Below are positions 36,184-46,583 of a DNA stretch of 64,000 bases, piece after piece. A program made the position numbers and the translations under genes. This DNA is from Clostridia bacterium (GTDB lineage Bacteria > Bacillota > Clostridia > Christensenellales > Borkfalkiaceae): positions 1-64,000 of the forward strand of contig JAFUJR010000007.1 of NCBI GenBank assembly GCA_017468085.1. The letters are read 5' to 3'. Numbering within the stretch: the first letter of the stretch is position 1; the number at the start of each line of letters is the position of its first letter. The notes under the pieces were generated by a model, which was not told the DNA's origin, did not search any database, and was given only the letters and a program-made list of their open reading frames with translations.

Positions 36184-39100
36184 TTAAATTTCGAGCATAC
36201 CCTCGTAGACGGTTTTCACGTTCCCGCTAAGCTCAACTTCACCATCGGAATGATAATTAACCGTCAAATCGCCGCCGCGAAGTTTGACCGTTACGTTGAT
36301 ATCCATCTCGCAATAGCCGCGAAGCACAGCCGCCACAACCGCCGCACAAGCGCCCGTACCGCACGCCCACGTTTCACCGTTGCCGCGCTCGTAAGCGCGC
36401 ATTTTTAAGGTAACCTTATTGACGACGCGCACAAACTCCGTACTGATTCCCTTGGGAAAATATTCGCTGTTTTCAAATTCCGCGCCAACCGCCGCCAAAT
36501 TGATTGCGTCCACTTTATCGCTGAAAATAACGCAATGCGGATTACCTACGTTGACAAGATTGATTTGATAATCGTTGCCACCCACGCGCACGGTTTTATC
36601 GACAATCTGCTTTTCTTTGAATACGCAAGGGATCTTTTTGCCTTCCAATTCCACCTTGCCAAGATTTACGCTTGCCGTGTTTACCTTACCGCTGAAAGAA
36701 TATACTTTCACCTCGCAAATGCCTTTACCGACTTCGATTTTCATATCGTTCTTGCGGACGATGCCCTTTTCATACAAATACTTACCTACACAGCGGATTG
36801 CATTCCCTCCCGTAGGCATTTCCACACCGTCGCCGTTGAAAAGGCGCATTTTTGCGTCTGCAACCTCGGAATTTTCAATCAATACGATTCCGTCCCCGCC
36901 AATGCCGTAATGCGGCAAAGCGTAGTTGACGGCTATCGATTCAGGACAAGTGATTTTTCCGTCGCGATTATCAAAAACAATAAAATCGTTTCCGCAAGAT
37001 TGCATCTTCGTAAAGCTCAATTTTAATTTTTCACCGCGCAATGCGTTGATGTCTACAAGCTCAGTGTTGTTTTCCGTAAATTTACTTGCGATAATATCCG
37101 CGAGCGCATTTGCCGTATCCAACGCCGTAAGCACCGTGATACCAAGCAAAATTGCGTGATGGTGTAAACGAATAAAGTCGTTGATGGATTCAATGTCCGT
37201 CTTGCCCGTATAAACGATATAGTCAATCTTTCCTTCGTCCATCAATTTGATGACGGTATCTGTAGCGGAAAGTCTATCCACCACTTGGCAGTCAAAGCCA
37301 AGGTCGGTAATGACCTTTGCCGTACCCTTGGTTGCATACATGGTACAACCCAAATCGCCAAATTTCTTGGCAATCGTAAGCAAGTCGAGCTTGTCTTGAT
37401 CGTTTACCGTCATATACACGCCCACGGAACGGCGTTCGGAAGGATGACACATCTTAAAGCCTGCGGAAACAAGCCCTTTAAACATTGCCTCCTCTATCGT
37501 TTTGCCGATACCGAGGACTTCGCCCGTCGATTTCATTTGAGGTCCGAGCTGAGAGTTTACGTCATTGAGTTTTTCAAAGCTGAATACGGGCACTTTGACC
37601 GCCACGTAAGGCGAAGAAGGATATAAGCCCGTGCCATAGCCGAGTTTTTTGAGTTTTGCTCCGACGATAATTTTCGTAGCAAGCTCTACCATAGGCACGC
37701 CCGTTACCTTAGAAATATAAGGCACGGTACGCGAAGCACGGGGATTCACCTCGATTACGTAAAGCTGCCCGCGATAAATCAAATATTGAATGTTGATAAG
37801 CCCTTTGGTTTTAAGCTCTAACGCAAGCTGAGTAGAAACCTCGATAATTCTTTCGAGCATAGAATCTTCAAGGTTATAAGGAGGATATACGGCAATGGAG
37901 TCGCCCGAGTGAATACCCGTACGCTCGATATGTTGCATAATGCCGGGAATAAGAACGTCCTTTCCGTCCGAAATGGCGTCCACTTCCAATTCCGTACCCA
38001 TCAAATATTGGTCGCAAAGTACGGGATTTTCGATGCCTTGCGCCAAGATAACGTCCATATAGCGGCAAACGTCCTCGGGGGTGAACGCAATCGTCATATT
38101 TTGACCGCCGATAACGTAGGAAGGACGAAGAAGAACGGGATATTCCAATGCTTCCGCCGCCGCCAACGCCTCTTCCTTAGTCATAACCGTCATTGCCTTG
38201 GGGCGGGGAATTGCATATTTTTCAAGCAAAGCCTCAAAGCGCTCTCTGTCCTCTGCTCTGTCTACGCTGTCTGCAGGCGTACCCAAAATACGTATACCGT
38301 GCGTATTGAAATAGGCGCAGAGGTTGATTGCCGTTTGCCCGCCGAATGTGATGATGACGCCGTAAGGCTTTTCCACGTCTAAAACGTGTTGCACGTCCTC
38401 GGGGGTCAACGGTTCAAAATACAATCTGTCCGCCGTATCAAAATCCGTGGAAACGGTTTCGGGGTTGTTGTTAATGATGACAACCTCGTAGCCAAGCTCC
38501 TTCAACGTCCAAACGCAATGCACAGAAGAATAGTCGAATTCGATCCCCTGTCCAATGCGGATAGGACCGGATCCGATAACGACGATGCGTTTTTTCTTCC
38601 CACCGACGAAAGGCTTTGCCTCGTCGTGCTCGTGCGGGTCGAACGTCGAATAGAAATACGGAGTTTTCGCAGGGAATTCTGCCGCGCAAGTATCCACCAT
38701 TTTATAGGCAACTTTTTTACGATAAGGAACCTTTTGCCCGCTGAGCGCGGCAATATCTTTATCCAAATAGCCAAGACGCTTCCCTTCCTCGTAAAGCGCT
38801 TTCGTCAGTTTCTCACCCGAAGCAAGACGATTTTCGTAACGGATAAGATTGAGGAATTTATTTAAGAACCAACGGTCAATTTTGGTGATTTTGAACACCT
38901 CGTCTACCGTAACGCCCTTTTTGAGCGCCGCATATACGACAAAAATTCTTTCGTCTGTCATCTCGGGCAACTTTGCCAACAATTCCTCTTTACTGGAATT
39001 GATAAATTTCTTATAATTGAAAGTGCTTGTCGAAATTTCCGCGCCGCGCACTGCTTTCATCATCGCCATTTCAAAGGACGTACCGATGGACATTACTTCG

Positions 39101-40239
39101 CCCGTTGCTTTCATTCTCGTACCTAATTCGCGCTTTGCATACAAGAATTTGTCAAACGGCCACTTGGGCATCTTTACAACCAAATAGTCGATTGTCGGCT
39201 CGAAACAAGCGTAGGTTTTACCCGTAACGTCGTTTACGATTTCATCCAAGGTATAACCGAGCGCAATCTTCGACGTAACCTTAGCAATCGGGAAGCCCGT
39301 CGCTTTGGACGCAAGCGCAGAAGAACGGCTTACACGGGGATTTACCTCGATTACGGAATACTCGAAAGAATCGGGATTTAACGCAAACTGCACGTTACAG
39401 CCGCCCTCGATGCCAAGCTCGGTGATAATAGACAGAGCCGCCGTACGGAGCATGTTATATTCTTTGGTGGTGAGTGTTACCGCGGGGGCAACCACGATGG
39501 AGTCGCCCGTGTGAATGCCGACGGGGTCGACGTTTTCCATAGAGCAGACCGTAAGGCAATTGCCGTTTCTATCGCGAATAACCTCAAACTCAACCTCTTT
39601 CCAACCTGCAATATATTTTTCAATCAAGACCTGCGTAATGGGCGAAAGCATCAAACCGTTATGAGAAATGAGGCGGAGCTCTTCTTCGTTGTACGCTACG
39701 CCACCGCCTGCGCCGCCGAGAGTATATGCAGGACGAATGATAACGGGATAGCCAAGCTTATCCGCAATCGCGACGCATTCTTCTACCGTATAAGCAATGT
39801 CGGAGGGAACGCAAGGCTGATTGATTTTTTCCATAGTTTCCTTGAAGAGCTCTCTATCCTCCGAACGATCAATTGCGTCTAATTTCGTACCGATAAGCTT
39901 TACGCCGTGTTCTTCCAAAAAGCCCGATTTTGCAAGTTTACAACCCATAGTAAGACCCGTTTGCCCGCCGAGCGATGCCAACAAGCTGTCGGGTTTTTCT
40001 TTTAAAATAATACGCTTTAAGGATTCCTCGGTCAGGGGTTCGAGGTAAATTTCATCGGCGAGTGCTTTATCCGTCATGATCGTAGCGGGGTTGGAGTTGC
40101 AAAGTACAACGTTCACACCCTCGCTCTTCATGACGCGGCAAGCCTGCGCGCCTGCATAGTCGAATTCTGCGGCTTGACCGATTACGATAGGACCAGAGCC
40201 AATCACCAAAACCTTTTTAATATCACTTCTCTTAGGCAT
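36184..40239 (-). CDS. carB: Carbamoyl-phosphate synthase large subunit fused to a diaminopimelate epimerase domain
   Basis: One open frame of 1351 residues. Residues 1 to about 1065 are a complete CarB: first ATP-grasp half (SGPIVIGQAAEFDYAG), oligomerisation domain, second half (SGPIRIGQGIEFDYSS) and a C-terminal MGS-like domain. Without a stop, residues about 1073-1351 form a DapF domain (TKMQSCGNDFIVFD, GIGGDG, VGNPHCV, ERGNGET, ACGTGAC). The second catalytic Cys is kept (1293), but the first (normally in MCGN) is Gly1144, in PTGGNAIRC. CarB makes carbamoyl phosphate; the epimerase would convert LL- to meso-diaminopimelate, if active. The start overlaps carA by eight bases. Confidence 0.93.
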   Translation of the reverse strand: MPKRSDIKKVLVIGSGPIVIGQAAEFDYAGAQACRVMKSEGVNVVLCNSNPATIMTDKALADEIYLEPLTEESLKRIILKEKPDSLLASLGGQTGLTMGCKLAKSGFLEEHGVKLIGTKLDAIDRSEDRELFKETMEKINQPCVPSDIAYTVEECVAIADKLGYPVIIRPAYTLGGAGGGVAYNEEELRLISHNGLMLSPITQVLIEKYIAGWKEVEFEVIRDRNGNCLTVCSMENVDPVGIHTGDSIVVAPAVTLTTKEYNMLRTAALSIITELGIEGGCNVQFALNPDSFEYSVIEVNPRVSRSSALASKATGFPIAKVTSKIALGYTLDEIVNDVTGKTYACFEPTIDYLVVKMPKWPFDKFLYAKRELGTRMKATGEVMSIGTSFEMAMMKAVRGAEISTSTFNYKKFINSSKEELLAKLPEMTDERIFVVYAALKKGVTVDEVFKITKIDRWFLNKFLNLIRYENRLASGEKLTKALYEEGKRLGYLDKDIAALSGQKVPYRKKVAYKMVDTCAAEFPAKTPYFYSTFDPHEHDEAKPFVGGKKKRIVVIGSGPIRIGQGIEFDYSSVHCVWTLKELGYEVVIINNNPETVSTDFDTADRLYFEPLTPEDVQHVLDVEKPYGVIITFGGQTAINLCAYFNTHGIRILGTPADSVDRAEDRERFEALLEKYAIPRPKAMTVMTKEEALAAAEALEYPVLLRPSYVIGGQNMTIAFTPEDVCRYMDVILAQGIENPVLCDQYLMGTELEVDAISDGKDVLIPGIMQHIERTGIHSGDSIAVYPPYNLEDSMLERIIEVSTQLALELKTKGLINIQYLIYRGQLYVIEVNPRASRTVPYISKVTGVPMVELATKIIVGAKLKKLGYGTGLYPSSPYVAVKVPVFSFEKLNDVNSQLGPQMKSTGEVLGIGKTIEEAMFKGLVSAGFKMCHPSERRSVGVYMTVNDQDKLDLLTIAKKFGDLGCTMYATKGTAKVITDLGFDCQVVDRLSATDTVIKLMDEGKIDYIVYTGKTDIESINDFIRLHHHAILLGITVLTALDTANALADIIASKFTENNTELVDINALRGEKLKLSFTKMQSCGNDFIVFDNRDGKITCPESIAVNYALPHYGIGGDGIVLIENSEVADAKMRLFNGDGVEMPTGGNAIRCVGKYLYEKGIVRKNDMKIEVGKGICEVKVYSFSGKVNTASVNLGKVELEGKKIPCVFKEKQIVDKTVRVGGNDYQINLVNVGNPHCVIFSDKVDAINLAAVGAEFENSEYFPKGISTEFVRVVNKVTLKMRAYERGNGETWACGTGACAAVVAAVLRGYCEMDINVTVKLRGGDLTVNYHSDGEVELSGNVKTVYEGMLEI

Positions 40240-41311
40240 TTTCTTTCTCCTCTTCCATCATCGAAAAGAATTTTGCGTAAATCGGATTTTCCGCATTTCC
40301 AATATCGCAACAATCGGGGGTAAATTGCACCGTAATCGCTTTTAAAGCGTTATATTCAATACCTTCGCAAGTACCGTCGTTTACGTTAATGAAATTCACC
40401 GTCCCCGCTTTCACACTGTCGTTTATCACGACGTAGCCGTGATTTTGCGTAGAGATATAAACCTTGCCGCTTTCCAGGCATTTGACGGGTTGATTGCCTC
40501 CGCGGTGTCCGTACTTGTGCTTTTCCACTTTTGCGCCGAGTGCCAACGCAACAAGCTGATGTCCAAGCCCCAAGCCAAAAATGGGTTTCTTGCCCAAGAC
40601 CTTTTTTATTTCCTCAACGGACTTTGCATAATCGTTGGGATTGCCGGGGCCTTCCGAAATCACGATGCCGTCCCCGCCCGATGCCAAAATTTCTTCCGCC
40701 GTAGCGTCCCCTCGTAAATTCATAACGTTATAGCCAAGGGAAAGGAATTTTTCAATCGTACTGTTTTTCGCGCCGAAATTCCAAAGCGTAATATATTTTG
40801 TATTCCCTTCACGGCAAACGGAATTCTCAAAAGATTCTTGGCTGAAATCATGCGCGTGTTGGCGATGGTTTGCAAGCGCTTTAATCTCTGCTTCCGTTAA
40901 AGGCTTTAAGCTGATACGTGCGTTCATCGTGCCTTCTTCGCGAAGTATCTTTGTCAATTGACGGGTGTCCACGCCATAGATGCCAACGACGTTTTGCTCC
41001 TTTAAATAGTTTTCTAATTTCCCTTCCATGCGGAAATTGGACGGTTCGTCGCAGATTTCGCGCACAACGTATGCCGAAACGCTCGCTTTTTTTCCCTCGA
41101 CGTCCGAATAAACCATTCCGTAATTGCCGATTAAAGGAAATGTCTGCATAAGAATTTGACCTTGGTTACAAGGATCGCTCAATGCTTCTATATAACCGAC
41201 CATGCCCGTATTAAAAACGAGCTCGCCCGAAACCTCTCCTTCGGCGCCAAACGAGTAGCCTTGGAAAACCCTGCCGTTTTGTAACGTCAAATACACCTTT
41301 TTCTTTTTCAT
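40232..41311 (-). CDS. carA: Carbamoyl-phosphate synthase small subunit with a dead glutaminase site
   Basis: A 359-residue CarA. The N-terminal CPSase_sm_chain domain is normal (LTLQNGRVFQGYSFG, GYIEALSDP). In the class I amidotransferase domain the nucleophile elbow GxCLGHQ reads GLGLGHQ, with Gly248 (codon GGG, 40568-40570) for the catalytic Cys. The QFHPE motif reads QFTPD, so His and Glu are Thr331 and Asp333. The whole Cys-His-Glu triad is gone, while GHRGGNQPV and TQNHGY remain. It probably serves as a structural partner of CarB, with ammonia as nitrogen source. Preceded by an attenuator leader. Confidence 0.93.
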   Translation of the reverse strand: MKKKKVYLTLQNGRVFQGYSFGAEGEVSGELVFNTGMVGYIEALSDPCNQGQILMQTFPLIGNYGMVYSDVEGKKASVSAYVVREICDEPSNFRMEGKLENYLKEQNVVGIYGVDTRQLTKILREEGTMNARISLKPLTEAEIKALANHRQHAHDFSQESFENSVCREGNTKYITLWNFGAKNSTIEKFLSLGYNVMNLRGDATAEEILASGGDGIVISEGPGNPNDYAKSVEEIKKVLGKKPIFGLGLGHQLVALALGAKVEKHKYGHRGGNQPVKCLESGKVYISTQNHGYVVINDSVKAGTVNFINVNDGTCEGIEYNALKAITVQFTPDCCDIGNAENPIYAKFFSMMEEEKENA

Positions 41312-41344: not shown

Positions 41345-41380
41345 TTATAAAAAATAAGACTGATTACGAAAATCAGTCTT
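41345..41380 (-). terminator. Attenuator terminator in the carA leader
   Basis: Ten-bp stem AAGACTGATT/AATCAGTCTT (41356-41365 with 41371-41380), five-base loop, followed on the minus strand by ATTTTTTAT. It lies 45 bases before the carA ATG, and its promoter-proximal arm contains the stop codon of the leader peptide. Confidence 0.75.
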
Positions 41381-41507
41381 GTTTTGCTAAAATAAATATT
41401 GACTCTTGGAAAAGAGAAAACGAAAGAGAACCGTTCGCGCGAACGTTGTTACTTTCGCAACGGCCAACCATCGTAGACAAATTTTCAAAAGAGTAAACCG
41501 AATACAT
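41373..41507 (-). CDS. Leader peptide of the carA operon (44 residues)
   Basis: A 45-codon frame (including TGA) starts about 15 bases from the predicted transcript start, with AGGTG upstream of the ATG. It ends with its TGA at 41373-41375, inside the promoter-proximal arm of the terminator. The message contains a GC-rich palindrome CGTTCGCGCGAACG (41432-41445), then U-rich stretches (41405-41430). There is no run of Arg or other single codons: only two Arg codons. The design resembles the enteric pyrBI leader, where UTP-sensitive pausing couples the ribosome to polymerase. Expression is not proven. Confidence 0.6.
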   Translation of the reverse strand: MYSVYSFENLSTMVGRCESNNVRANGSLSFSLFQESIFILAKQD

Positions 41508-41530
41508 AACGCACCTACTTGTTTCAACAT

Positions 41531-41559
41531 ATTATACCATTATAATACGTCTTTGTCAA
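41531..41559 (-). promoter_or_regulatory. Consensus promoter of the carA operon
   Basis: Minus-strand TTGACA (41554-41559), exactly 17 bases, TATAAT (41531-41536). Predicted start near 41524, giving a leader of about 210 nt before carA. Confidence 0.8.
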
Positions 41560-43829: not shown

Positions 43830-46583
43830 ATGAGCGAACGCGACACCGTATTAGAAACGGACAGCGCCCTCACCGGCGGCGAAGAACAGAGCTTTGATAT
43901 CAGCTCCGACCTTATTCGAGGCCACATCAACACCATTATTCTCCGTAGCCTTTACGACGGGGATAAGTACGGCTATGAAATCATCTATGAAATCGAAAAG
44001 AAAAGCGGCGGCATGTATACGTTAAAACAGCCCACGCTTTACAGCGCGCTTAAACGTTTGGAAAGTTTAAATTACGTTACGTCCTATTTCGGCGAGCAAT
44101 CGCTTGGCGGAAGAAGAAAATATTTCTCCCTCACCGACCAAGGTAAACGCGTAACCGAACAAAATCTTTCCGAGTGGGAATATTCGAGGACGATTATCGA
44201 CAGTTTGATTTCCGACGGAGAAGCGCACTACGACTTTTCGTTTATTACCGACAAACAAAACGAACTTGCCGAAATGAAGCGTGCGCTCGACGCGCGTGAA
44301 CAGGCGTTCGAAGAAGAGAAAAAAGCGTTTGCAAGCCTTAAAAACGAACTTCAACGAGAACGTTCCCTCCTTGCCGCACAGAGTTCCACTCTGTCCAACC
44401 AAAAATCCGACTTTAACGAATTGCGCGAAAAAGTTGAAGCCCAAACGCAGGAGTTAGACAGACAACAGCGCGCTATCAATGAAAAACAAGGCGAATTGGA
44501 CGCAAAGGAAATTGAGCTTCATGAAAAAGAACGTGAAATCGGTAACGCAAAGTTAGAGCTTGAACGCTTAAACGAAGAAATCCTTGCATTAAAGCAAAAG
44601 CTGACAGAACAGCAAAACGCATATGATGAGCAAGGTAACGAGCTCCGCAATGCGAAGCAGGAAATCCGCACCTTGCAAGAGCAAAACGCCCTGCTTACCG
44701 AGCAATCGGCAAACAACGAAGAATTAGACGCCGCACGCCAGGAAATCAGCGAGCTTCAAGAAGAACTTGAAAGCAAGAAAACGGTGATCTCCTCTTTAAA
44801 TTCTGCGTTGACCACACAAGAAAACGCGTTGAATCTGTTAAAGACGGATTACGACAATAAAACCACCGATTTTTATAACAAGACCTTAGAACTTCGCGCA
44901 CAACAAGCGCAAATCGACGCACAAAAACAAAAAATTGAAAGCGATAAACTACAAATCGAAACGCAAGCAACCGAAACGGAAGAGCTTAGACGCACGTTAG
45001 AAGAACGCGAAGCGCAGCTCCTCTCCCGCGAAAGCGAGTTGAATTTGCTTGAGAGCGAACTAAAAACCAAATCCGAAGCATTCGCGAGCGTTAACCTCAT
45101 TGAAATGGAAGAAGAAAGACGCGCTTTCGAAGAAGAACGCTCCGAACTGCAAAACCGCTTGGAAACGCTTGAGGTGGAACGCAACATTCTCCGCAATGAA
45201 AACGAGGCTTTGGAACAAGCAAAAATTGCGCTTGAAGAAGAACGAGCGTCTTTAAACGCTTTCCAGGAAAGCCTTAAAACCGAACGCGAAGAACTTGATA
45301 AGAAAAATTACGAAATCACACAACTCCAATACAGCATTGAAGAGCAAAAGCGTACGTTGGACAACCAGCAAAACGAGGCGACAGCGTCCAATGAAGTGGT
45401 GCAAAGACAATTGACCGATTTGGAAAGCCGCGAAAACGACTTGCTTAAGAGCAACAGTAAATTACAAGACGAAATCCTCTCTCTTCAACAACAGCAAAAG
45501 GAGCTCGCCGTCCGTCAAGGTATCTATAATCAGCAACAGTTGGAATTTATTTCCCGCAAAAATGCACTTGCCGCGCAACAATTTGATTTTGCTGAAAAAT
45601 TGAGCACCTACAATGCGCAAGTTAAGATTTTTAATGAAAATCTTGAAAAATTAGAAGCCGAACGCCTTGCCCTCCAAAAAGAAAAGGCGCTCCACGAGGA
45701 AGAAGTCCGTGAGTTCGAAAGAAAAAAAGCGGAATTAGAAAAAGAAAGAGCCCGTCTCGAAGAAGAAAAGGACGAACTCGCGCGCAATCAAATGGAAGCG
45801 CAGAAACGCGCACATGACGACGCCTCGGGTTTCCAACTTCGTATGAAACAATTACAAGAATGGGAAACTGCCCTTCAGCAACGCGAAAATGCTATCAACG
45901 AGCGTCTCCGCGATGTACAAAACGCACAAAATGCGCAACCGTATGCATACGGAACTTTCCCTCAGCAACAGTCCTTCCCCAATCCTCAAAACTTCCCCCC
46001 TACGCCTACTGCTCCTAATCCTAAAAACGAATTATTTGACAGAGCGCAAAAGGACGGGATCCGTTTGAATACCGTTGGAACGATGCGCGGCACGCAGAGC
46101 ACTCACGTACCGACTGTCATAGAGAAGCCTATCTCCACTTCTACGGCAACGCAATCCACGAAACGCGGTCATTTCAATATGGGGAAAACATTGTTTAAAT
46201 CCGCATTTATCATACTTTGTATTGTGGCATTTGAAAGCCTTATCGTTTTCTTTGCTAAAAATTATTTGAACGTTTCAGTGCTTTATCCCATCCTTGGGTT
46301 TACGGCTGGATTTATCCCCTTTATTGTTTGCGCAATCCTTTACGCAACCGGTTATAAAGCAAACGCAAAACTGAAAAAACGGGCTTCGTATATACTCACT
46401 TCAACTATCATCTTTGTGATTTGTGTGATTTTAGTAACGATGGTTGCCGTTTATATGAAAGCTCAGATTTCCCTTGTTCCTCAGCTTTTGTCTTATATCG
46501 TTATTCCCATTGGATACTTGACAAACATTCTGTTTTTCGTTACTTTCTACTATGTGTTCTCGATAAAGGAAAGCAAGAAATAA
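43830..46583 (+). CDS. PadR-type DNA-binding protein with long coiled coil and four membrane helices
   Basis: A 917-residue protein of unusual design. Residues about 27-110 are a PadR winged helix (HINTIILRSLYDGDKYGYEII, TLYSALKRLESLNYV, GGRRKYFSLTDQGK). About 130-705 is a continuous coiled coil rich in Glu, Gln and Lys with heptad repeats, like SMC or myosin rods. A Gln/Pro-rich linker follows (about 705-780), then four membrane segments (about 788-912) and a short cytoplasmic tail. It could tether DNA to the membrane, or sense the envelope through the rod. AGGAGG precedes the ATG. Own consensus promoter and terminator. The function is unknown. Confidence 0.85.
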   Translation: MSERDTVLETDSALTGGEEQSFDISSDLIRGHINTIILRSLYDGDKYGYEIIYEIEKKSGGMYTLKQPTLYSALKRLESLNYVTSYFGEQSLGGRRKYFSLTDQGKRVTEQNLSEWEYSRTIIDSLISDGEAHYDFSFITDKQNELAEMKRALDAREQAFEEEKKAFASLKNELQRERSLLAAQSSTLSNQKSDFNELREKVEAQTQELDRQQRAINEKQGELDAKEIELHEKEREIGNAKLELERLNEEILALKQKLTEQQNAYDEQGNELRNAKQEIRTLQEQNALLTEQSANNEELDAARQEISELQEELESKKTVISSLNSALTTQENALNLLKTDYDNKTTDFYNKTLELRAQQAQIDAQKQKIESDKLQIETQATETEELRRTLEEREAQLLSRESELNLLESELKTKSEAFASVNLIEMEEERRAFEEERSELQNRLETLEVERNILRNENEALEQAKIALEEERASLNAFQESLKTEREELDKKNYEITQLQYSIEEQKRTLDNQQNEATASNEVVQRQLTDLESRENDLLKSNSKLQDEILSLQQQQKELAVRQGIYNQQQLEFISRKNALAAQQFDFAEKLSTYNAQVKIFNENLEKLEAERLALQKEKALHEEEVREFERKKAELEKERARLEEEKDELARNQMEAQKRAHDDASGFQLRMKQLQEWETALQQRENAINERLRDVQNAQNAQPYAYGTFPQQQSFPNPQNFPPTPTAPNPKNELFDRAQKDGIRLNTVGTMRGTQSTHVPTVIEKPISTSTATQSTKRGHFNMGKTLFKSAFIILCIVAFESLIVFFAKNYLNVSVLYPILGFTAGFIPFIVCAILYATGYKANAKLKKRASYILTSTIIFVICVILVTMVAVYMKAQISLVPQLLSYIVIPIGYLTNILFFVTFYYVFSIKESKK

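What the first reader, a model, noticed from the sequence alone, without database searches (positions are those of the whole stretch)
41345..41559. pyrBI-like attenuator: leader peptide whose stop codon lies in the terminator stem
A perfect TTGACA-N17-TATAAT promoter is followed by a 44-residue leader frame with a ribosome site, a GC-rich palindrome (41432-41445), U-rich runs and an intrinsic terminator. The leader TGA is inside the stem, so a ribosome following closely would melt it. This is the logic of the enteric pyrBI operon (UTP-sensitive pausing), unlike the PyrR system usual in Firmicutes.
Basis: partly seen in the sequence, partly recalled or inferred. Interest (0 to 1): 0.75.

Follow-up and report, generated by a model that had tools for sequence, protein, structure and literature searches.

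The report
Ribosome-guarded off-switch before carAB genes
In front of the genes for carbamoyl-phosphate synthase, a group of uncultured gut Clostridia keeps a short leader reading frame whose stop codon sits inside a transcription terminator, so that a ribosome close behind RNA polymerase should keep the genes on; it is built like the classic E. coli pyrBI switch, though what it senses is not yet shown.

Summary
On the minus strand, upstream of carA (41311-40232), lie a perfect TTGACA-N17-TATAAT promoter, an SD-like site, a 44-codon leader ORF (41507-41373), a hairpin running into a U-rich tract, and an intrinsic terminator (41380-41356) whose 5' arm holds the leader TGA. 36 of the genus's 57 held genomes (own included) have it: 36 of 36 leader frames are open up to the stem, 34 stop at the same stem TGA. 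The U tract starts 46.9 +/- 4.5 nt before the TGA and is constrained beyond the peptide. No Rfam match, PyrR site or clear antiterminator was found. Five sister-genus carA genes with their own leader show the same design; carA genes read behind argF or pyrC do not. No leader genome has PyrR over cut-off and none of 12 PyrR genomes showed the leader, but this rests on few transitions and is confounded with operon context. Best reading: transcription-translation-coupled attenuation of carAB, working like E. coli pyrBI, probably sensing UTP. The signal is inferred; arginine is not excluded, since two relatives carry the same stem between argB and argD. New variant of a known kind.

The parts
41531..41559 (-). 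Promoter TTGACA-N17-TATAAT with TG before the -10; perfect consensus
   Evidence: 35 of 36 leaders of the genus have 12 of 12 matches and 36 of 36 have TG
41512..41516 (-). Shine-Dalgarno-like AGGTG of the leader ORF
   Evidence: SD-like sequence before 36 of 36 leader ATGs (loose pattern)
41373..41507 (-). Leader ORF, 44 codons, ends TGA 41375-41373 inside the terminator 5' arm
   Evidence: 34 of 36 leaders stop at the same stem TGA (L093 by eye)
41420..41474 (-). Putative RNA-polymerase pause hairpin (contains the palindrome 41432-41445); its 3' arm abuts the U tract
   Evidence: fold; 36 leaders mean z -1.23 against -0.14 in carA control segments
41410..41425 (-). U/C-rich tract TTTCGTTTTCTCTTTT within the leader ORF, starting 50 nt before the TGA; proposed UTP-sensitive pause region
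   Evidence: TTT over TTC bias
41346..41380 (-). Intrinsic terminator (stem 41380-41356, tail ATTTTTTATA); stem core CTGATT/AATCAG
   Evidence: in the own genome the stem pattern occurs at this one place (listed on both strands, being palindromic)
40232..41311 (-). carA, carbamoyl-phosphate synthase small subunit; the gene that would be regulated
   Evidence: NF009475 and TIGR01368 over cut-off
36184..40239 (-). carB fused in frame to dapF
   Evidence: NF003671 residues 1-1053; TIGR00652 residues 1075-1349; both over cut-off

Best explanation
It is a transcriptional attenuator of carAB that reads how closely a ribosome follows RNA polymerase. A strong promoter starts the transcript; a ribosome loads on the leader ORF; polymerase is held at the hairpin and the U/C-rich tract about 47 nt before the leader stop. 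When UTP (perhaps also CTP) is scarce the pause is long, the ribosome catches up, reaches the TGA in the terminator's 5' arm and physically keeps the stem from forming, so carAB is transcribed. When UTP is plentiful polymerase does not wait, the ribosome lags, the stem forms and transcription ends. Shown by sequence: promoter, SD-like site and open leader frame, stop in the stem, U tract constrained in place and sequence, excess structure before it. Inferred: that the leader is translated, that polymerase pauses there, that the ribosome melts the stem, and that the signal is UTP.
For: 36 of the 57 genomes of the genus carry it. Frame 0 is open up to the stem in 36 of 36, the other two frames in 1 and 5; lengths vary from 37 to 48 codons yet 34 of 36 stop at the stem TGA. 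U tract: mean 11.1 U and 14.1 pyrimidines of 16, starting 46.9 +/- 4.5 nt before the TGA; 0 of 300 codon-shuffled sets as rich, 24 of 36 leaders above their own 95th percentile. Phe codons in the tract are 61 TTT: 7 TTC against 201: 167 in 27 carA genes (p = 1e-8) and 45: 18 in the rest of the leaders, so U seems selected beyond the peptide. Structure before the tract: mean z -1.23 (p 1e-7) versus -0.14 in carA control segments. Promoter perfect in 35 of 36, which points to control after initiation; pairing of the leader with the terminator arms is near shuffles (z -0.46 +/- 0.24 and +0.33 +/- 0.15, sites scattered). E. coli pyrL read here has the same order of parts: 44 codons, hairpin, GTTTTTCTTCCCGTT, terminator inside the ORF. 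No leader genome has PyrR over cut-off, and PyrR genomes showed no leader. Five sister-genus carA leaders have the same design.
Against: No expression or metabolite data. The PyrR exclusion rests on few changes on an RpoB tree of 41 genomes (3 for PyrR, 6 for the leader label), on draft genomes, and is confounded: in PyrR genomes carA lies behind argF or pyrC. ArgR is over cut-off in 22 of the 36 leader genomes, and the same stem lies between argB and argD in two sister-genus genomes, hinting at arginine. Two of 36 leaders (L015, L097) do not stop at the stem TGA. RNAalifold did not recover the upstream hairpin. Near-invariance of the stem is not explained by this model. [quoted passage not shown] subtilis, and passages of a 2026 paper tie purine-rich genes to such runaway transcription: 12 window genes average 54% purine, and this genome's stop-to-terminator spacing was indecisive. 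The pyrimidine tract could also load Rho; not tested.
Confidence: 0.62

Rival explanations
1. Same ribosome-guarded terminator, but the signal is arginine or general translation status: anything that slows or stalls the leader ribosome lets the terminator form.
For: carA lies directly behind argJ here; in two sister-genus genomes the same stem with a stop codon at its base separates argB and argD (gene names by my reading); an Arg codon is common in the U-tract motif.
Against: No Arg-codon run: mean 1.75 Arg in the last 37 codons, RR in 1 of 36. Stalling at Arg codons under starvation would switch arginine-related genes off, the wrong sign. The peptide motif is not kept in sister genera and the U tract is biased at synonymous sites. 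ArgR is present in the own genome.
Confidence: 0.22
2. Arrest peptide: a nascent leader peptide binds a ligand and stalls the ribosome.
For: A motif like VRFSxFQ recurs within the genus; second codon positions in the tract differ least (0.15).
Against: The motif is absent in the five sister-genus leaders; within the genus residues change while the pyrimidine run stays; Phe codons in the tract favour TTT.
Confidence: 0.06
3. A palindromic DNA operator or RNA site for a regulator that happens to look like a terminator.
For: CTGATT...AATCAG is nearly invariant across species and recurs in sister genera.
Against: Half-site spacing varies by several nt between species, unlike a dyad operator; a U run follows in all 27 aligned leaders; two outer pairs show compensatory change.
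Confidence: 0.06
4. An ordinary weak terminator of an unrelated small gene, without regulation.
For: Terminators close to stop codons are common in this genome (median 16 nt).
Against: Only 2 of 65 detected terminators start more than 3 nt before a stop; promoter, leader, U tract and terminator stay together before carA in 36 genomes.
Confidence: 0.04

Closest known systems
E. coli / Salmonella pyrBI (pyrL) attenuator
   Same: Short leader ORF (44 codons in both), hairpin then U-rich tract in the ORF, terminator overlapped by the ORF (E. coli leader read; role of coupling: passages of PMC4824070 and PMC5021804).
   Different: Precedes carAB, not pyrBI; leader stops in the 5' arm instead of reading through the terminator; near-invariant stem; Clostridia. 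UTP response untested; the two leaders were not aligned. Absence of an antiterminator in pyrBI is recalled.
Pseudomonas carA leader peptide and pyrimidine attenuation
   Same: A leader peptide upstream of carA in P. aeruginosa and a suspected pyrimidine attenuation (passages of PMC4997734).
   Different: Proteobacteria; one passage calls the mechanism possible; its anatomy was not compared here.
E. coli carAB tandem promoters
   Same: Single carbamoyl-phosphate synthase; control by pyrimidines and arginine (passages of PMC6245113).
   Different: Regulated at initiation by ArgR, other factors and UTP-dependent reiterative transcription; a passage states that attenuation is not involved at P2.
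PyrR attenuation (Firmicutes)
   Same: Ends transcription of pyrimidine genes when pyrimidines are ample (recalled).
   Different: No PyrR over cut-off and no PyrR-binding RNA found in this genome.
uORF attenuator candidates in Firmicutes and relatives
   Same: hisS leader peptide in bacilli (passage of PMC2965389); uORFC-6-1 before hflX in Bacillales and uORFC-13-1 before aroF in Acholeplasma (passages of PMC8632094).
   Different: Other genes; His or other codons or an antibiotic-type motif as the proposed signal, not nucleotide pausing.
carA motif SRC-12-1
   Same: Candidate RNA upstream of carA (passage of PMC8632094).
   Different: Beta-proteobacteria; described as an extended imperfect hairpin; the passage shown mentions no leader-terminator overlap.

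Membership tests
pyrBI-type UTP-sensitive attenuator | Leader ORF overlapping the intrinsic terminator | tested here: met
   Frame open up to the stem in 36 of 36; stop inside the 5' arm in 34, in the loop in 1, beyond in 1. Translation itself not observed.
pyrBI-type UTP-sensitive attenuator | Hairpin followed by a U-rich tract inside the leader | tested here: met
   the hairpin is shown by excess folding energy, not by covariation; pausing itself not tested.
pyrBI-type UTP-sensitive attenuator | No mutually exclusive antiterminator (recalled feature) | tested here: met
   z -0.46 +/- 0.24 (5' arm) and +0.33 +/- 0.15 (loop and 3' arm); site positions scattered.
pyrBI-type UTP-sensitive attenuator | Expression falls with high UTP, dependent on leader translation | not testable with these tools
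   Needs reporter and in-vitro transcription.
pyrBI-type UTP-sensitive attenuator | Homology to the enteric pyrL leader | not tested
   Only the order of parts was compared; independent origin is assumed.
PyrR attenuation | PyrR protein in the genome | tested here: not met
   No match over cut-off in own genome (82% complete); 0 of 36 leader genomes over cut-off, 12 other congeners over it.
PyrR attenuation | PyrR-binding RNA (RF00515) in the leader | tested here: not met
   0 of 57 genomes over gathering score; one weak match, in PyrR genome G003. The model stayed silent in 11 of 12 PyrR genomes, so this is a weak test.
Amino-acid (trp/his type) attenuator | Run of control codons and antiterminator | tested here: not met
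   composition shows no single dominant residue (Phe 9.8% highest), no conserved antiterminator site; runs other than RR were not counted.
Arrest-peptide attenuator | Conserved peptide sequence | tested here: inconclusive
   A motif recurs within the genus but not in five sister-genus leaders; codon-position differences 0.39, 0.37, 0.54 before the tract in 34 of 561 pairs, chosen by peptide similarity.
ArgR operator | Dyad of fixed spacing near the promoter | tested here: not met
   The stem dyad has variable spacing and its TGA lies 136-168 nt after the -10. Other ARG boxes were not searched for.
Known Rfam family | Match at gathering score | tested here: not met
   Window: one tRNA only; 20 loci of relatives, 16 of them carA leaders: none.

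The most novel reading that the evidence does not exclude
A pyrBI-type, UTP-sensing, ribosome-coupled attenuator arose independently in Clostridia, took over carAB control where PyrR is missing, and thereby shows close polymerase-ribosome coupling at this locus in a group related to one thought to transcribe ahead of its ribosomes; the near-invariant terminator stem, also used between argB and argD, would carry a second, unknown constraint such as tuned release at CUGAUU or a trans-acting partner.
Probability: 0.45. Interest if true: 0.8.

Novelty: new variant of a known kind. Interest (0 to 1): 0.66.

Why it matters
[quoted passage not shown] later uORF candidates in Bacillales and Acholeplasma are described (passages of PMC8632094). 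B. subtilis polymerase is said to outrun its ribosomes (passages of PMC7858274). A conserved attenuator that seems to need a ribosome close behind polymerase would be a natural probe of coupling in Clostridia, and would suggest that nucleotide sensing by pausing evolved more than once. Nine full-text searches of the held library, judged by their listings, showed no description of such a system in Clostridia; most subscription papers are not held.

Tried and rejected
Classical antiterminator: duplex energies against shuffles gave z -0.46 +/- 0.24 and +0.33 +/- 0.15 with scattered sites, little support. PyrR loop, T-box or other riboswitch: no Rfam match at gathering score. Reiterative initiation as at E. 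coli carAB: no T run just after the -10 by eye; not tested further. Coupled versus runaway expression from stop-to-terminator spacing: median 16 nt over 65 terminators of 359 called genes here against 20 nt over 15 of 124 in three E. coli stretches, indecisive. Rho loading on the pyrimidine tract: considered, not tested. Covariance model R1: 36 of 398 family genomes matched, but one match (G024) was a false positive on reading, and it missed G031 and the sister-genus leaders, so its silence in the 341 genomes of other genera is not absence. RNAalifold on the whole alignment recovered only the terminator; the upstream hairpin varies in sequence and was tested by folding each leader. Peptide-level selection: 34 of 561 pairs used, chosen by at least 45% peptide identity, which biases towards third-position differences.

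Rows dropped or not counted: L014 (contig edge), L029 and L032 (carA behind argF, no leader) were left out of the 27-row alignments. Two second carA copies in leader genomes, G053 (L090) and G052 (L092, only 194 nt held), lie close behind another ORF and show no such stem. Script 62 stopped with an error after printing the E. coli part and was rerun; the carA Phe count covered too few genes and was redone. Leader L093 was missed by the scan; it was read by eye, and its stem position was set by hand in the script. The report was returned once for checking; mended then: wording on antiterminator, arrest peptide (now inconclusive), the second carA copies, purine bias, earlier Firmicutes leader candidates.

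Full report
WHAT IS THERE. The feature lies on the minus strand between argJ (42835-41603; best NCBIfam matches are ArgJ models but below their cut-offs) and carA (41311-40232); carB follows and is fused to dapF. Reading 5' to 3': TTGACA (41559-41554), 17 nt, TATAAT (41536-41531) with TG before it; AGGTG; ATG at 41507; a 44-codon ORF; a predicted hairpin (about 41474-41420) whose 3' side runs into TTTCGTTTTCTCTTTT (41425-41410); the terminator AAGACTGATT-TTCGT-AATCAGTCTT (41380-41356) with its U run; carA starts 44 nt after the stem. The leader stop TGA (41375-41373) is in the terminator's 5' arm.

CONSERVATION IN THE GENUS. A search of the 57 held genomes of the genus, own included, found matches to CarA in 49 (the one in G028 is weak and partial). 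Of the 30 loci returned I read the upstream DNA of 29 (L014 is cut by a contig edge): 27 carry the arrangement and two (L029, L032) have carA directly behind argF without it. A covariance model of the U tract and terminator matched 36 of 398 family genomes, all in the genus. I then read further upstream stretches: nine more genomes carry the leader (G004, G012, G016, G026, G031, G038, G042, G043, G053); the model had missed G031, and its match in G024 is the terminator of something else. Total: 36 of 57 genomes. Of the other 21, 12 have PyrR; of the remaining nine, G044 is cut at the carA start and eight had no carA match of any length that counts. Two second carA copies, in G052 and G053, have no leader.

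THE LEADER IS A READING FRAME. In 36 of 36 an ATG with an SD-like sequence opens a frame that is free of stops up to the stem; the other two frames are open in 1 and 5 of 36. Lengths range from 37 to 48 codons, yet 34 stop at the same TGA in the stem (L093 by eye). L015 stops in the loop and L097 after the U run. The chance of in-frame and open was estimated as 0.047 per leader from shuffles; species are related, so the binomial tail of that call is not a true probability. Among similar leaders third codon positions before the tract differ more (0.54) than first and second (0.39, 0.37), but the pairs were chosen by peptide similarity. So an open frame is conserved, the peptide only weakly.

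HAIRPIN AND U TRACT. The most pyrimidine-rich 16-mer averages 11.1 U and 14.1 pyrimidines and starts 46.9 +/- 4.5 nt before the TGA; codon-shuffled leaders are less rich (0 of 300 sets as rich; 24 of 36 leaders above their own 95th percentile) and scatter in place (sd 11.0). Phe codons are 61 TTT to 7 TTC in the tract, 45 to 18 in the rest of the leaders, 201 to 167 in 27 carA genes (tract against carA p = 1e-8). Residues change while the pyrimidine run stays. The 54 nt before the tract fold better than shuffles (mean z -1.23; 17 of 36 below -1, 3 above 0), against -0.14 in 54 carA control segments, taken on the strand as stored. RNAalifold did not recover this hairpin, so covariation for it is not shown; in the terminator two of ten pairs have a compensatory change.

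WHAT IT LACKS. Pairing of the leader with the terminator's 5' arm (z -0.46 +/- 0.24) or loop and 3' arm (+0.33 +/- 0.15) is close to shuffles and scattered in place, so a trp/his kind of switch has little support. RR occurs in one of 36 leaders and no residue dominates. No Rfam family. No PyrR over cut-off in this genome and no PyrR-binding RNA over threshold in 57 genomes, though that model is weak here. The stem dyad has variable spacing, so a dyad operator is unlikely.

PHYLETIC PATTERN. PyrR is over cut-off in 12 of 57 genomes, none of them among the 36 leader genomes. Of the 12, carA upstream DNA was read in nine and shows no leader; in G007 carA lies beside an argF-like gene by coordinates; G024 and G025 could not be read at carA. 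argF is supported by coordinates of weaker TIGR00670 matches, pyrC by my reading of the sequence only. This fits the leader as a stand-in for PyrR. Cautions: the genomes are drafts; an RpoB tree of 41 genomes puts eight PyrR genomes (with G044) in one clade and G025 apart, 3 changes for PyrR and 6 for the leader label; and carA in PyrR genomes sits behind argF or pyrC, so operon context is an equal explanation. ArgR is over cut-off in 31 of 57 genomes, 22 of them leader genomes including this one.

BEYOND THE GENUS. Of 57 other family genomes sampled (every sixth handle), 40 had matches; the 30 carA loci returned were read by eye: 26 have carA behind argF and no leader, four (L193, L198, L201, L203) have carA with its own promoter-like sequence, leader ORF and a terminator with the same CTGATT/AATCAG core. 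The stem pattern was then sought in 396 genomes of the order: six have it, all among 34 family genomes, none of 362 outside; the reversed control pattern gave 0. One of these, L211, is again before carA. In these five leaders the stop is the stem TGA in four and a TGA 4 nt earlier in one. Two other matches (L212, L213) lie at the end of argB before argD, with argB's own TGA at the stem base (gene names by my reading). So the 41 carA genes read here that are not close behind another ORF of an operon have the leader.

HOW IT MOST LIKELY WORKS. The parts have the order of E. coli pyrL, read here as a yardstick: 44 codons, hairpin, GTTTTTCTTCCCGTT, terminator within the ORF. Passages of two papers describe coupling across the pyrBI leader as what prevents its terminator. 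By analogy polymerase waits at the U tract when UTP is low, the ribosome closes up to the stem TGA, and carAB is read; a fast polymerase leaves the ribosome behind and the stem forms. The sign is right for feedback by pyrimidines. The own pyr operon (pyrB-pyrC-...-pyrF-pyrK-pyrD-pyrE, named by my reading of ORFs of at least 150 aa) shows no carAB, and one carA match was found in the genome, so this carAB probably serves both arginine and pyrimidines. Translation, signal, pausing and ribosome action are inferred.

WHAT DOES NOT FIT. The stem core is far more constant than a terminator needs, and recurs between argB and argD. Either the CUGAUU stop context is tuned for release, or something else reads the stem, or arginine genes share the control. 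Coupling in this group is itself uncertain: B. subtilis is described as mostly uncoupled (passages), purine-rich genes are tied to runaway transcription (passages) and 12 window genes average 54% purine. I give the arginine rival 0.22.

KNOWN OR NEW. The mechanism class is known from enteric pyrBI, and a carA leader peptide with possible pyrimidine attenuation is reported in Pseudomonas (passages). A Clostridia example, on carAB, with the stop in the stem, did not appear in the listings of nine full-text searches of the held library. I rate it a new variant of a known kind, interest 0.66.

Noticed in passing
36184-40239 (-): CarB is fused in frame to DapF (diaminopimelate epimerase), a 1351-residue protein.
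   Followed up: no
upstream of pyrB in L111, L114, L116, L119, L121, L122, L126-L128, L130-L132 and others: By eye, 18 of 27 pyrB upstream stretches printed show a different candidate attenuator: a hairpin like CGTCTTGG...CCAAGACG with a U run, often with an ACGAAAC element upstream complementary to its loop. The own genome's pyrB lacks it. No Rfam match in the four of these loci scanned.
   Followed up: partly
L212, L213 (argB-argD junction): The same GACTGATTT...AAATCAGTC terminator sits at the argB stop codon before argD in two sister-genus genomes.
   Followed up: partly
41517-41505 and 41321-41309 (-): Leader and carA share nearly the same start context, TAGGTGCGTTATG and TAGGTACGTTATG.
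   Followed up: no
G000:C23 and G000:C29: rpoB matches with identical scores on two contigs of the window's assembly, perhaps an assembly duplication.
   Followed up: no
43830-46583 (+): A 917-residue protein joins a PadR-like N-terminus (model match below cut-off) to a long coiled coil and, by eye, membrane segments.
   Followed up: no
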